Assembly (NCBI GenBank): GCA_947627205.1
Contig: CANQVE010000014.1
Coordinates: 1 to 46,419 of the forward strand
Source of the DNA: an uncultured Clostridia bacterium
Lineage (GTDB): Bacteria > Bacillota > Clostridia > Oscillospirales > Ruminococcaceae
DNA length: 46,419 nt
Reading direction: 5' to 3'
Below are positions 33,705-37,996 of this stretch, one piece after another. Position 1 is the first letter of the stretch. Each line of letters opens with the position of its first letter. The notes under the pieces were generated by a model. That model had not been told where the DNA came from and did no database searches. It worked only from the letters and a program-made list of their open reading frames with translations. The position numbers and the translations under genes are program-made.

Positions 33705-33824
33705 ATATTTGTATGGTGTAATTTACTATAAGTGGGAGTATAATTTTAATTTAAAATTTGTATTCAGACTGTATAAATAGAGAAGATTATGAATGTTGAT
33801 AAAAACCGAAAGGAATGATAATTT

Positions 33825-34481
33825 ATCAAAAAGACGATAATTTCCGCGTCGCTTCTTGCGTGTGATTTTGCGAGCCTTGCATACGAAAGCGAACGCTGTG
33901 CAAAAGCGGGAGTAGATTGGATACATTTCGACGTTATGGACGGGCATTTTGTAGAGCAGATAACCTACGGTTCGCCTGTCCTCAGATCAATAGACAAGGT
34001 TACGGACAAGTTTATGGATGTTCATCTCATGGTGGACAACCCCGAAAGGCAGATACCGCTTTTCGCGCGTTCGGGCGCGGATCTTATAGACGTACATATC
34101 GAAAGCAGTAAAGATGTTTTCGGGTGTCTGGAAGAAATACGCGCGTTCGGGCTTAAATCGGCGGTCGCTGTAAAGCCGAACACTCCCATAGAAGAAGCAT
34201 ATAAATATCTTCCGCTTTGCGATATGGTGCTTGTTATGACGGTAGAACCCGGCTACGGCGGGCAGAGCTTTATGACAGAAATGATGACAAAAGTAAGAAA
34301 GCTCCGCGATTATGCCGACAAAAACGGCTTTGCCGACCTCGACATACAGGTAGACGGGGGAGTGAATACCCGCACGGCAAAGCTCGCGCGCAATGCGGGA
34401 GCAAATGTTCTTGTCGCGGGAACGGGACTTTTCGGCGCCGCTGATATGAACGCCGTATGCTCCGCTCTGAAAGGAATTTAA
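33825..34481 (+). CDS. rpe: Ribulose-phosphate 3-epimerase, possible ATC start
   Basis: Rpe interconverts ribulose-5-phosphate and xylulose-5-phosphate in the pentose phosphate pathway. The frame runs from KKTIISASLLACDFASL through WIHFDVMDGHFVE, MDVHLMVDNP, VEPGYGGQSF and QVDGGVNTRTA, so all metal and catalytic residues are there and length is near 218. No ATG, GTG or TTG lies in frame before residue 37; an in-frame TAA (33819-33821) is followed directly by TTT ATC AAA AAG. AAAGGA (33809-33814) is 10 bases before ATC 33825, which I take as the start. ATG 33936 would remove the conserved first strands. A frameshift from ATG 33815 is the alternative. It ends two bases before the RnfD-like gene. 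Confidence 0.85.
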   Translation: MKKTIISASLLACDFASLAYESERCAKAGVDWIHFDVMDGHFVEQITYGSPVLRSIDKVTDKFMDVHLMVDNPERQIPLFARSGADLIDVHIESSKDVFGCLEEIRAFGLKSAVAVKPNTPIEEAYKYLPLCDMVLVMTVEPGYGGQSFMTEMMTKVRKLRDYADKNGFADLDIQVDGGVNTRTAKLARNAGANVLVAGTGLFGAADMNAVCSALKGI

Positions 34482-34483
34482 CT

Positions 34484-35593
34484 ATGGCGGAAAATGCCAA
34501 TAATTTGCCCGTGAGGGCTTATGCCGAAAGATTTGTTTTTATGGCGGCAGTCGTTGTGCTGGCGGCGTTTATGCAGGGACTTAGAGCCGCGGTGGTCTGC
34601 GCCGTAGCGGTCGTTTCGGCAATGGCTGTAGACGCGCTGTGCTGTCTGGCGAGAAAACAGCGCTATGCTCCGAAAGACATGGCTGTGCCGTTCTGGGGGC
34701 TTTGTTCGGGAATTATGATGCCGATAAGCGCTCCGATCTGGGCGGCGATATTGTCTGCGGCGGTCTGCATAATTGTCGGAAAGCACTTTTTCGGTTCTTC
34801 GGACAATATCCTGTTCTGCCCGCCCGCTATATCTACGGCTTTTATGATACTCTGCTATCCCGCGCAGATGCTGTATTTTCCGAAATACGGAGAGACATAC
34901 CCCGTTTTCGGGAGCTATAACGGCACGCTTATACACTCCGCAGAATATTCTCTGCGCATAGGCTATACGCCGTCCGAGGATATCTGGGATACGCTCCTCG
35001 GATTTACAAGCGGTGCAATAGGCACAATTTATATCCTTGTAATACTTGTCTGCGGGATTTGCCTTGCAGTCCGCAGAAAGGCAAGTCCCGCCGCAATGCT
35101 TTCGTGCATAATAACGGTAGGCATAATGGCGTTCTTTTTCCCGAGGGCGAAATACAGCGCATGGAACTCGGTATTCTACGAGCTTTCTTCGGGATATCTG
35201 CTTTTCGGAACGGTTTTTTTGTGTGCCGAGCCGTACCGTATGCCGAAAAGAACTTCCGCGCGCATAATCTACGGCGCAGTTCTGGGATATATAACCATGA
35301 TGTTCCGCGCATACGGAAGAACAGAGGGCGGATTTATATTTGCACTTTTGGTAGTGAGCGCGCTTACGGACTGTTTTGACAGGTTTGTGGACAATTTAGC
35401 ATATTGGAGAAAGTCTTATCTTTCTTCTTTTGAAAAGAACAAAGTTAGCGTACAGAGCGGGGATATGAAGCTCACGGACACGCAGGAAATAATGATACCC
35501 GAAAAATACCGCTATAATACCCCGCCCATTGACGGAAAGATAAAGAAACATAAAGGACGCCGCAGAAACAGGAGGGACAATGGAAAACAATAA
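34484..35593 (+). CDS. RnfD/NqrB-like membrane protein lacking flavin site
   Basis: The 369-residue protein has about nine to ten helices and aligns with RnfD/NqrB: FWGLCSGIMMPISAPIWAAI (family: G-LP---P-W), IVGKHFFGSSDNILFCPPA (family: IGK-VFGG-G-NPFNPA), LLGFTSGAIG (family: G---GSIGETS) and EGGFIFALLVVSALTDCFDR at the end. The SGAT motif that carries covalently bound FMN on Thr is replaced by HSAE before YSLRIGYTPS, and the ATDPVTSP loop by CAEPYRMP. So it keeps the fold but not the flavin site. A charged tail (KKHKGRRRNRRDNGKQ) is added. ATG 34484 follows AAAGGAATTTAACT. It overlaps the RnfE-like gene by 14 bases. Confidence 0.8.
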   Translation: MAENANNLPVRAYAERFVFMAAVVVLAAFMQGLRAAVVCAVAVVSAMAVDALCCLARKQRYAPKDMAVPFWGLCSGIMMPISAPIWAAILSAAVCIIVGKHFFGSSDNILFCPPAISTAFMILCYPAQMLYFPKYGETYPVFGSYNGTLIHSAEYSLRIGYTPSEDIWDTLLGFTSGAIGTIYILVILVCGICLAVRRKASPAAMLSCIITVGIMAFFFPRAKYSAWNSVFYELSSGYLLFGTVFLCAEPYRMPKRTSARIIYGAVLGYITMMFRAYGRTEGGFIFALLVVSALTDCFDRFVDNLAYWRKSYLSSFEKNKVSVQSGDMKLTDTQEIMIPEKYRYNTPPIDGKIKKHKGRRRNRRDNGKQ

Positions 35594-36185
35594 CAAGCCC
35601 TTAAGTTACGACGGGCTTTTCAGACAAAATATAGTGCTTGTGAGCGGACTTGTCTCCGCCCCGATAATAATAGCCTGCACGACGCTTATGCATGCGCTTG
35701 TCCTTTCCATAGGCTTTTTTATGATATCCTACCTGTCCATACTGATATGCAGGTTTATCCCGTCAAAGATAGCCTATACTTTCAGGATAATGCTCTATGC
35801 GCTGGTGGCGGCGGCGCTGTATATACCGACGGTATTGCTCCTCAATAAACTGTTTCCCGAAGCCGCAAATCAAGTCATGCTGTATATCGGGCTTATGACG
35901 GTAAATTCACTCTTATTCGCAAAGACCGAAAGCCGATTTTATCTTATCCCGCTTGGGAAAATGGCAATAGACGTTCTGGTTTATATTGCGGGATTTGCAC
36001 TCGTTGCGTTTGTTGTCGGCTTTATAAGAGAGATCTTGGCAAACGGAACGCTTTTCGGAACAGAGATTTGCCCCGCGATTATGCCCGCGGCTAGCTCTCC
36101 GTTTTTCGGGTTTATACTTGTGGGATTGCTTGCGGCGCTGTGCAGGGCAATTTCCGAGCGCCGAAAGGAGCGCGGAGATGGCTGA
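35580..36185 (+). CDS. RnfE/NqrD-like membrane protein lacking Fe-S Cys
   Basis: A 201-residue, six-helix protein. QNIVLVSGLVSAPIIIAC matches the family start QNP-LVQLLGLCP-LAV, with Ala in place of the cluster Cys before Pro. MTVNSLLFAKTESRF matches VNC-ILGRAEAFA with Ser for the second Cys. GFIREILANGTLFG is the strongly conserved RnfE/NqrD motif (GF-REILG-GTLFG), so the family call is firm. Both ligands of the intramembrane [2Fe-2S] cluster are thus missing. A good AGGAGG site lies inside the end of the RnfD-like gene. It overlaps the RnfA-like start by eight bases. Confidence 0.85.
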   Translation: MENNNKPLSYDGLFRQNIVLVSGLVSAPIIIACTTLMHALVLSIGFFMISYLSILICRFIPSKIAYTFRIMLYALVAAALYIPTVLLLNKLFPEAANQVMLYIGLMTVNSLLFAKTESRFYLIPLGKMAIDVLVYIAGFALVAFVVGFIREILANGTLFGTEICPAIMPAASSPFFGFILVGLLAALCRAISERRKERGDG

Positions 36186-36774
36186 AGTTTTTGCAAGAAT
36201 GATAAGCCTTGCGATGATCGCGATTTTTTCACAGAACGCGGTATTTGACAGGGCTTTCGGCGTGGACGTAGCGATATACGCTTCAAGAAAAAATCACCAC
36301 ATAATCGGCTTTACCGTTGCCACAACTATTATGACGACGCTTGCGAGCGCGGCGGCGTATGTTTTCGACATAATGCTTCTGCCGACGAAATACGGATATT
36401 TGTTTATGCCGCTTATTTATGTGGCAATTGTGAGCATACTCTATATGATAGGGCTGTTCGTGCTTTGGAGAGCTTTTCCGAAAGTGTTTTACAGAGTAAA
36501 ACAATATGCCCATCTTGCGGTATTCAACCTCGCGGTATTCGGAGCGCTTTTCCTAAACTACAATTTCGGAAAGGGCTTTGCGGGTTATGTAGGTTACGGT
36601 TTCGGTACGGGAATAGGTTTTTTCCTTGCCTGTTTCCTGCTGAATATCGTACACGAAAGATTTAACAGCGAAAAGATACCCCGTATGCTCAGAGGTTATC
36701 CCATAACGCTTATTTTTATAGGAATAATTTCTTTGGCATTAAACGTTTTAGTGGGATATATGACGGAATTTTAA
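36178..36774 (+). CDS. RnfA/NqrE-like membrane protein lacking Fe-S Cys
   Basis: A 198-residue, six-helix protein starting at ATG 36178 behind GGAGCGCGGAG. FSQNAVFDRAFGVDVAIYAS matches the family NN-VL--FLGICPFLGVS, with Asp at the Cys position. FMPLIYVAIVSILYMIG matches LPLI-VNCAVLG with no Cys. The C-terminal PRMLRGYPITLIFIGIISLA matches P--L-G-PI-LI-AGI-ALAF. The two remaining cluster ligands are absent, so with the RnfE-like protein all four are lost. It ends the D-E-A triad. No RnfB, RnfC or RnfG gene lies in the window. Confidence 0.82.
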   Translation: MAEVFARMISLAMIAIFSQNAVFDRAFGVDVAIYASRKNHHIIGFTVATTIMTTLASAAAYVFDIMLLPTKYGYLFMPLIYVAIVSILYMIGLFVLWRAFPKVFYRVKQYAHLAVFNLAVFGALFLNYNFGKGFAGYVGYGFGTGIGFFLACFLLNIVHERFNSEKIPRMLRGYPITLIFIGIISLALNVLVGYMTEF

Positions 36775-36832: not shown

Positions 36833-37996
36833 TTGAAATACAAAAAGACAAAGATAAAGATAAAACGAAGTAAAGTCAACCTTTACAACAAGAGAAAAAA
36901 CAGAAAAAAACAGATCGCGGCTATAATAATAACCGCCGCGGCGGCGTGCGCACTGTGCATTCTGGGATATGGGATAGGAAAGCCTCTTATAGATTATTTC
37001 CGAAACCGCGATTCGATAATTTCGTCGTCTGCAATGTGGACGCCCGAGGGCTCGGAGACACAGGAAAGTTCTTCGGGCAATTCAAGCGCTCCCGCTCAAA
37101 GCTCGTCATCTGCTCCCGTTGAACAGCCCAAGCCCGTTATGACAAAATCGGCTTATTTCCTTTCGGGAGAAGCGGCGTTAAGCTCGGCTACGCTTAATTC
37201 GGAAATATCTGCGGCAAAATCCTTGGGGCATTCAGTCATAGTAGTAACGCTTAAAGACGGCGACGGAATGTTCCTTTATAAGACTGCAATTGAAAAGGTG
37301 CAGACAAAAGGCACGCTCACCGCCTCGCAGATAGCGTCTGAAATAGAAAAAGCGGGGCTTATCCCCGCTGCAATGATAAGCACTCTTAAAGACAAGACAA
37401 ACGGAGTTGCTCTGGGGTGCTGTTATAAGTTTGAGAGCGGCGCGACGTGGCTTGACGACCGCCCCGGAGTGGGAAAGACATGGCTCTCGCCCTTTGACGA
37501 AAAGACGGGGGAATTTATAAAGGCTATTACCTCCGAGCTTTCAGCGGCGGGATTTAAGCGCATTGTCGCGGTAGGGACGATGTACCCGAATTTCTATTCA
37601 ACGGACATTTCGGAAAACCTCGCCCATTTACCGCTAAAAGACAGGACAAAGCGCGCAGAAGCGCTGTGGAATGTTATAGCTTCGGCGAAAGAGGGCTGCG
37701 GCGAAGCAGAGCTTTATATAGAAATGGACGGCTCAAAGCTCATAGCGTCAAGAAAAGACGGAACGAACGCAGAAATGGCGTTCACTCCCGAACGGCTCAA
37801 AACCGCGAACCTTATTGTTGATTATTCTCCGTCGGAGTCCGATCCTTATGCCGAAGCGCAGAAATTCATTGAAAAACTGAAAACGGCTCTTGACGGCGCA
37901 GAATGTGTCGTAAGAATAAAGGGAAATTCTCAGACGGCGATCGAAAGTGTCAAAAAAGCATTTGAAGAGGCAGGAATTGAAGCCTTTTCACAATAA
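36833..37996 (+). CDS. Membrane-anchored exported protein, TIM-barrel-like
   Basis: It starts at TTG 36833 (ribosome site AGAGGTCACGG). The 387-residue protein has a very basic cytosolic N-terminus (about 30 residues of K/R), one helix (about 30-52), a Ser-rich linker (about 66-98) and an extracellular domain of about 280 residues. Segments such as GHSVIVVTLKDGDGMFLYKT and GFKRIVAVGTMYPNFYSTDI, and a final strand VVRIKGNSQTA, suggest a degenerate glycoside hydrolase-like barrel (DUF4015-type), but I cannot name catalytic residues. It follows the Rnf-like triad by 58 bases, perhaps in the same transcript. Confidence 0.55.
   Translation: MKYKKTKIKIKRSKVNLYNKRKNRKKQIAAIIITAAAACALCILGYGIGKPLIDYFRNRDSIISSSAMWTPEGSETQESSSGNSSAPAQSSSSAPVEQPKPVMTKSAYFLSGEAALSSATLNSEISAAKSLGHSVIVVTLKDGDGMFLYKTAIEKVQTKGTLTASQIASEIEKAGLIPAAMISTLKDKTNGVALGCCYKFESGATWLDDRPGVGKTWLSPFDEKTGEFIKAITSELSAAGFKRIVAVGTMYPNFYSTDISENLAHLPLKDRTKRAEALWNVIASAKEGCGEAELYIEMDGSKLIASRKDGTNAEMAFTPERLKTANLIVDYSPSESDPYAEAQKFIEKLKTALDGAECVVRIKGNSQTAIESVKKAFEEAGIEAFSQ

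What the first reader, a model, noticed from the sequence alone, without database searches (positions are those of the whole stretch)
34484..36774. Rnf-derived D-E-A membrane triad that has lost all redox cofactor residues
Three overlapping genes keep the order and fold of rnfD-rnfE-rnfA (or nqrB-D-E). Seen in sequence: by motif alignment, each of the four Cys positions of RnfA/RnfE is replaced (Ala in LVSAP, Ser in VNSLLF, Asp in FGVDVA, no Cys in PLIYVAIV), and the RnfD SGAT flavin site reads HSAE. Established: in Rnf/Nqr these Cys hold a [2Fe-2S] cluster in the membrane and that Thr binds FMN. RnfB, RnfC and RnfG are absent here. Yet all three frames are intact, overlapping and hold other family motifs (GFIREILANGTLFG, PRMLRGYP). 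Inference: the module has been kept for a non-redox job, perhaps ion or small-molecule transport, possibly with the exported protein encoded just downstream. I know of no description of such a paralogue.
Basis: partly seen in the sequence, partly recalled or inferred. Interest (0 to 1): 0.82.

Follow-up and report, generated by a model that had tools for sequence, protein, structure and literature searches.

The report
Cofactor-stripped copy of Rnf membrane core
Many gut Clostridia carry a second, conserved set of Rnf energy-pump membrane proteins that has lost the membrane parts needed to carry electrons but keeps much of its ion path, so it probably does a different, non-redox membrane job and should not be counted as a second Rnf pump.

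Summary
Window genes D' (34484-35593), E' (35580-36185) and A' (36178-36774) are RnfD/E/A homologues. The host has a separate intact rnfCDGEAB operon. It is no local oddity: 38 of 40 opened same-family loci have D'-E'-A', with three of the four sites Cys-free throughout. The module forms one clade (52 tips with the window, support 1.0) in six families of the order. Its fullest form is rpe - [RnfC-like C'] - D' - E' - A' - [DUF4015]. C' keeps eight [4Fe-4S] cysteines but not the nucleotide loop, and is lost in the window's lineage. Canonical rnfCDGEAB sits beside DUF4015 in two loci of families f4 and f7, so the module probably arose from an rnf operon at this place. Genes are under purifying selection. 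Six genomes at least 90% complete have the module but no canonical RnfA/E/B found. Ion-path residues are mostly kept (RnfE R67 87%, RnfA N112 90%, E115 55%) while cofactor residues are gone. Best reading: a repurposed, non-redox, ion-gated membrane complex; that function is inferred. One paper lists an 'rnfDEA' and counts it as working Rnf.

The parts
34484..35593 (+). D': RnfD/NqrB-like membrane protein, 369 aa, with a conserved extra C-terminal tail (DTQEI...PPIDGK)
35580..36185 (+). E': RnfE/NqrD-like membrane protein, 201 aa
   Evidence: PF02508 1.7e-22; PDB RnfE/NqrD chains
36178..36774 (+). A': RnfA/NqrE-like membrane protein, 198 aa
   Evidence: PF02508 3.9e-18; PDB RnfA/NqrE chains
34937..34945 (+). 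D' Ser152-Ala153-Glu154 at the RnfD covalent-FMN Thr site (no Thr)
34817..34819 (+). D' Cys112 where RnfD N123 binds riboflavin
   Evidence: N123 role from a PMC11889175 passage
35228..35230 (+). D' Glu249 where RnfD D249 binds riboflavin
35658..35660 (+). E' Ala27 at first RnfE cluster Cys
35907..35909 (+). E' Ser110 at second RnfE cluster Cys
36265..36267 (+). A' Asp30 at first RnfA cluster Cys
36529..36531 (+). A' Leu118 at second RnfA cluster Cys (the correct place; PLIYVAIV is not the site)
35784..35786 (+). E' Arg69 = RnfE R67 of the Na+ path (kept)
   Evidence: role from PMC11889175 section 8 part 1
35928..35930 (+). E' Glu117 = RnfE E115, ion-pair partner of R67 (kept)
36526..36528 (+). 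A' Asn117 = RnfA N112, Na+ ligand (kept; numbering mapped by a +4 offset, my inference)
36833..37996 (+). DUF4015 (putative glycosyl hydrolase) protein with an N-terminal hydrophobic stretch, frequent neighbour
   Evidence: PF13200 6e-7; in 37 of 39 opened family loci L036-L074 and 59 of 64 named loci
33825..34481 (+). rpe (ribulose-phosphate 3-epimerase), conserved upstream neighbour; probable ATC start
   Evidence: PF00834

Best explanation
The triad is the membrane core of an Rnf complex that was stripped of its redox parts and kept for another job. Shown: common descent with RnfD/E/A; loss of the [2Fe-2S] Cys set, the FMN Thr and (in this host) the riboflavin-pocket residues; no RnfB or RnfC at the locus; purifying selection; wide conservation; persistence in genomes where no canonical RnfA/E/B was found. 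Inferred: A' and E' still form the alternating-access ion gate of Rnf (Na+ or H+), and D', whose fold resembles Amt/urea channels, sits beside it as a second conduction or docking unit. Switching would be driven by ion binding or by partners rather than by electron transfer. In many relatives an RnfC-like subunit with two [4Fe-4S] motifs probably docks on the cytoplasmic side and could act as a redox or oxygen sensor; in the window's lineage it is gone and the core works alone, usually beside the envelope protein DUF4015. Identity and non-redox state in this host: about 0.93 likely. The ion-gated transport mechanism: about 0.45.
For: Homology and fold. Cofactor sites lost while ion-path residues are mostly kept: over 53 E' and 52 A' (window included), RnfE R67 kept 87%, RnfA N112 90%, RnfE gates L22 68% and L103 72%, E115 55%, against Cys 4%, 0%, 0% and 54% and the RnfB-contact lysine 8%. 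In the named window-like loci R67 63/63, E115 63/63, N112 61/61, and Cys 0/63, 0/63, 0/61 at three sites. dN/dS D' 0.08-0.15, E' 0.08-0.21, A' 0.04-0.12 against five relatives. One clade of 52 tips, support 1.0. Genomes with the module and no canonical RnfA/E or RnfB found: G153, G177, G195, G238, G340, G102. Own genome has an intact rnfCDGEAB.
Against: No transport assay or substrate. E115 is kept in only 10 of 32 loci that have C', and L22 and L103 in 35 and 29 of 63 named loci, so the ion path is not uniformly preserved. Conservation of R67 or N112 could be structural. The canonical reference for these percentages is four sequences. DUF4015 was not found beside seven of eight opened f24 loci. 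Where C' is present some electron flow is not excluded. An open pore in D' was not shown: only a single-chain model was made.
Confidence: 0.5

Rival explanations
1. Residual redox sensor: the RnfC-like C' with two [4Fe-4S] clusters passes electrons to riboflavin in D' and gates A'/E' or signals; the window's lineage is a secondary loss of this.
For: All 8 Cys kept in 18 of 18 C' aligned and in 32 of 32 C' rows. Riboflavin residue N123 kept in 31 of 32 loci with C' against 11 of 21 without (Fisher 1.5e-4, not corrected for shared ancestry).
Against: None of the 32 C' rows keeps the GGAGFP nucleotide loop, and 16 of the 18 lack the N-terminal domain; FMN Thr, RnfG and RnfB are gone, so no through-membrane path is seen. 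The window has neither C' nor the riboflavin residues, and its genome has no second C'.
Confidence: 0.22
2. D' acts as an Amt/urea-type small-solute channel, with A'/E' as accessory subunits; ion pumping is no longer involved.
Confidence: 0.15
3. Alternative subunits that assemble with the canonical RnfB/C/G into a hybrid Rnf, or regulate it by competition.
For: The host has both sets. 121 of 148 family genomes have a match over the rnfD cut-off; some single hits over the cut-off are D' by their places.
Against: Genomes keep the module with no canonical RnfA/E or RnfB found. The lysine that meets RnfB's last cluster is kept in 8% only.
Confidence: 0.06
4. A decaying remnant without function.
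For: Loss of subunits and residues across the clade. flags one in-frame stop within the D' match in G011, G008 and G087, not examined further.
Against: D', E' and A' each gave a full-length open frame in 38 opened loci; dN/dS is well below 1; genomes of 0.7-1.0 Mb that lack canonical Rnf keep D' and E'.
Confidence: 0.02

Closest known systems
Rnf complex (rnfCDGEAB), e.g. Acetobacterium woodii 9eri, Clostridium tetanomorphum 7zc6
   Same: D, E, A subunits homologous, same relative order D-E-A, same fold for D', ion-path residues R67/E115/N112 kept in the window; C' of relatives is RnfC-derived
   Different: no RnfB, no RnfG found at the locus, no membrane [2Fe-2S] Cys set, no FMN Thr; C' lacks the nucleotide loop or is absent
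Na+-NQR (nqrBDE core)
   Same: homologous core (NqrB, NqrD, NqrE)
   Different: sequence matches are below every nqr cut-off; no cofactor residues; nqrA/C/F were not searched for
'rnfDEA' of Faecalibacterium duncaniae A2-165 (CG447_09840-830), PMC10781979, one passage seen
   Same: same three-gene composition, listed apart from a complete rnfCDGEAB
Amt/Rh and urea channels
   Different: 7-14% identity; no functional residue tested

Membership tests
Rnf complex (functional, redox) | D, E, A membrane subunits homologous to RnfD/E/A | tested here: met
Rnf complex (functional, redox) | two Cys in each of RnfA and RnfE for the membrane [2Fe-2S] cluster (ligand pairing recalled) | tested here: not met
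   A, S, D, L in the window
Rnf complex (functional, redox) | Thr in RnfD for covalent FMN | tested here: not met
   Ser152-Ala153-Glu154. The exact column is uncertain by a few residues, but IHSAEY has no Thr; Thr stands at the aligned column in 3 of 53 sequences
Rnf complex (functional, redox) | RnfB, RnfC, RnfG in the same operon | tested here: not met
   (RnfG only by its absence among the neighbouring proteins); the canonical set lies on contig C30 with its own D, E, A
Rnf complex (functional, redox) | NCBIfam rnfD/rnfE/rnfA cut-offs | tested here: not met
   87.5, 48.4, 67.4 bits against 207, 213, 229
Rnf complex (functional, redox) | Fd:NAD+ oxidoreductase activity with ion pumping | not testable with these tools
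   bench test needed
Rnf-type ion path (A/E) | RnfE R67 and E115, RnfA N112 | tested here: met
   all three in the window; 63/63, 63/63, 61/61 in named relatives, but E115 only 10/32 in loci with C'
Na+-NQR | NCBIfam nqrB/D/E cut-offs | tested here: not met
   nqrB 64.5 of 349.9 bits, nqrD 39.8 of 244.9, nqrE 46 of 247.6
Na+-NQR | NqrA, NqrC and NqrF subunits | not tested
   no search was made for them
Amt/Rh/urea channel superfamily (D') | shared fold | tested here: inconclusive
RnfC (for C' of relatives) | two [4Fe-4S] motifs | tested here: met
   8 Cys in 18 of 18 and in 32 of 32 rows
RnfC (for C' of relatives) | GGAGFP nucleotide/FMN loop and rnfC cut-off | tested here: not met
   loop in 0 of 32 rows; TIGR01945 151, 130 and 184 of 246 bits for three C'; the C of L116 scores 295, over the cut-off, but has also lost the loop

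The most novel reading that the evidence does not exclude
Bacteria of this order have turned the Rnf pump into a new kind of membrane transporter: the A'/E' pair keeps Rnf's alternating-access Na+ gate but is run by something other than electrons, and D', freed of its flavins, is again an Amt/urea-like conduit. It is a natural separation of ion translocation from redox chemistry, kept even where Rnf itself was lost, and it may at present be annotated (perhaps in Faecalibacterium) as a second Rnf.
Probability: 0.3. Interest if true: 0.88.

Novelty: new variant of a known kind. Interest (0 to 1): 0.74.

Why it matters
Where Na+ crosses Rnf has been disputed; one structural study puts the channel in RnfA/E, contrary to earlier suggestions (PMC11889175, passages and section 8 part 1 seen). 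A natural Rnf core that dropped its cofactors while keeping most of the proposed A/E ion residues bears on that question independently and offers a system for uncoupling ion movement from electron flow. It also warns that genome-based energy budgets of gut Clostridia may count a non-redox module as an Rnf pump, as one paper may do for F. duncaniae (its sequence is unchecked).

Tried and rejected
Rejected: (1) sequencing error or pseudogene: frames and dN/dS say otherwise. (2) A single odd genome: recurrent in the family and in five further families of the order. (3) Presence throughout the class: of 196 class genomes searched with the E' profile, 30 loci were opened; besides the window, one f24 locus and the G165 locus, the 27 best from outside the order all have four Cys and RnfB. 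Weaker hits were not opened. (4) DUF4015 as an obligatory partner: not found beside f24 loci L109-L113, L118 and L119, found in L120. (5) The N-terminal basic motif of DUF4015 as proof of a functional link: strict K[IV]KR in 74 of 102 cofactor-less loci, 0 of 2 canonical-adjacent loci and 0 of 30 loci outside the order, there tested only in the first 45 residues after the first Met. Basic N-termini are common before a membrane helix and shared ancestry can explain it, so it is only a hint. (6) Complementation by rnfB/C/G elsewhere: see rivals. Led nowhere: the DUF4015 structure prediction did not finish (ticket, last asked); scans of genome contigs with wide alignments were not possible. Rfam gave only a tRNA. 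Promoter and repeat scans were not run. Literature: no paper describing a cofactor-less Rnf paralogue turned up in the searches, 86 of the held library, of which I saw the listings; subscription papers are not covered.
Full report
Observation. They match PF03116, PF02508 and PF02508 and, by sequence, solved RnfD, RnfE and RnfA chains. They fall far below the NCBIfam cut-offs for rnfD, rnfE and rnfA. At the RnfD FMN Thr the window has Ser-Ala-Glu; the pairwise alignment shifts this by some residues, also without Thr. RnfD N123 and D249, reported to bind riboflavin in Acetobacterium woodii (PMC11889175, passage), are Cys112 and Glu249.

The host. G000 has 2.25 Mb in 54 contigs, 99.8% complete. 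PF02508 finds four proteins: the two of the window (80.5 and 66.1 bits) and two on contig C30 (228 and 187 bits). C30 carries rnfC-D-G-E-A-B with all Cys, the flavin Thr and the RnfC nucleotide loop. No second RnfC-like gene was found. Relatives whose D' is 54-93% identical are MAGs labelled Clostridia, Oscillospiraceae or Ruminococcaceae, several named after deer gut samples.

How widespread. With the window's D', 138 of 148 same-family genomes gave a match, but this includes canonical RnfD. By my count of the list 103 genomes have a match of 100 bits or more, a range in which at least one canonical RnfD (G014, 103 bits) also falls. I opened 40 loci, chosen mainly from the top of that list: 38 have D', E' and A' together, L041 is cut by a contig end after E', and L075 has D' alone. 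In the alignments, which include the window, Cys is absent at both E sites (0 of 40 each) and the first A site (0 of 39); at the second A site 25 of 39 keep Cys. Among 64 named loci, 57 show rpe-(MecA-like)-D'-E'-A'-DUF4015 in order and the other 7 a part of it; Cys is 0 of 63, 0 of 63 and 0 of 61 at the same three sites and 44 of 61 at the fourth.

The fuller module. In 21 of 39 family loci (L036-L074), and in 11 of 13 cofactor-less loci of other families, an RnfC-derived gene (C') stands just upstream of D' (similarity). All 32 keep the eight Cys of two [4Fe-4S] motifs and none keeps the GGAGFP loop, mostly DERDGxP or similar; 16 of the 18 aligned lack the N-terminal domain. The window and all 64 named loci have no C'. 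On the tree C' is absent from one half of the family except L069.

Where it came from. In L125 the canonical rnfCDGEAB lies after rpe and before DUF4015, and in L124 before DUF4015: the same place as the cofactor-less module. DUF4015 also follows rnfB in L271 and L281, outside the order. L126 (genome G165) has all six genes but Cys at only two of four sites, while another operon of that genome is fully canonical at these sites; it branches just below the cofactor-less clade (support 0.99). The 52 cofactor-less tips, window included, form one group (support 1.0), though long branches make attraction possible. Within genus g129, four genomes (G153, G177, G195, G238) have only a low-scoring PF02508 pair (64-97 bits) and a fifth (G211) only a canonical-scoring pair (211 and 206 bits); the Cys sites were read in full for G153 and G238 and for E' only in G177 and G195. 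I infer decay or replacement of an rnf operon in place.

Independence from Rnf. G153, G177, G195, G238 and G340 (90-99% complete) have only the weak PF02508 pair and no rnfB over cut-off; of the 11 genomes tested for rnfB only G000, G211 and G377 do. G102 (1.0 Mb, 94%) has a C'-like gene, D', E' and A' with no Cys at the four sites and no canonical Rnf found; G087 and G068 (0.9 and 0.7 Mb, both 97%) have D' and E' in separate places, A' not found. The genomes are not closed, so a missed gene is possible in any one of them. Taken together the module is not an accessory of Rnf.

Selection. Against five relatives (Nei-Gojobori), dN/dS is 0.077-0.148 for D', 0.077-0.212 for E', 0.038-0.119 for A' and 0.089-0.134 for DUF4015; IMPDH of the same window gives 0.019-0.045. 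Many dS values exceed 1 and are rough.

What is kept. In A. woodii Rnf the Na+ path is placed in RnfA/E, with RnfE R67 and E115, RnfA N112 and leucine gates, and RnfA K32 meeting RnfB's last cluster (PMC11889175 section 8, part 1). Numbering was carried over through the host's canonical proteins; for RnfA I used an offset of 4. Over 53 E' and 52 A', R67 is kept in 87%, N112 in 90%, L22 and L103 of RnfE in 68% and 72%, E115 in 55%; the Cys sites in 4, 0, 0 and 54%; K32 in 8%. The mean over columns invariant in four canonical sequences is 38% (E) and 35% (A). In window-like named loci R67, E115 and N112 are invariant (63/63, 63/63, 61/61), but in loci with C' E115 is only 10 of 32, which weakens a uniform ion-path claim. 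N123 of the riboflavin pocket is kept in 31 of 32 loci with C' and 11 of 21 without.

DUF4015. It is present in 37 of 39 family loci L036-L074, the other two (L041, L049) being cut by contig ends by my reading, but was not found beside seven of eight f24 loci. The nearest solved relative by sequence is 4s1a (E 1.6e-16). One paper shows DUF4015 fused to a YkyA domain that also occurs with polysaccharide deacetylases (PMC12700454, one legend passage), which fits an envelope-glycan role. Its function here is unknown.

Literature. One paper names a triad rnfDEA in Faecalibacterium duncaniae besides rnfCDGEAB and gives both as energy-conserving (PMC10781979, one passage; the only hit for 'rnfDEA'). 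I found no account of cofactor loss in the searches listed under Tried and rejected. PMC12174285, PMC4014512 and PMC9600882 were read in passages only.

Verdict. The finding is real and larger than reported: a cofactor-stripped descendant of Rnf in at least six families of one order, under selection. Its job is not known; ion-gated transport is my best inference.

Noticed in passing
window 33819-34481 (rpe): No ATG, GTG or TTG lies between the upstream in-frame stop and the conserved N-terminus of rpe; ATC at 33825, about 10 bases after AAAGGA, is the likely start. Relatives L149 and L150 have ATC too, and L155, L158, L162, L164, L166 also lack ATG/GTG/TTG there, while other relatives have ATG: a possible non-AUG start in this subclade.
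   Followed up: partly
between rpe and D' in many relatives, e.g. L041:5485-6072 (-): A MecA-like adaptor gene (PF05389, 9e-23) lies antisense between rpe and the module in many relatives, not in the window.
   Followed up: partly
L126 (G165:C9), L234, L238: A complete rnfCDGEAB whose RnfE/RnfA keep Cys at only two of four cluster sites, in a genome that also has an operon with all four: a possible transitional form.
   Followed up: partly
L118:5418-6222: An exported CAP/SCP-like protein appears to be encoded between D' and E' in one f24 locus in which no DUF4015 was found (the family name is from reading the sequence, not from a search).
   Followed up: no
window 35471-35593 (D' C-terminus): A conserved tail (DTQEI...PPIDGK) is present in the window's subclade and extends beyond the end of the host's canonical RnfD domain match.
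   Followed up: no
L116, L117 E' gene: E' carries an N-terminal extension of about 300 low-complexity, charged residues in two genomes of genus g129.
   Followed up: no
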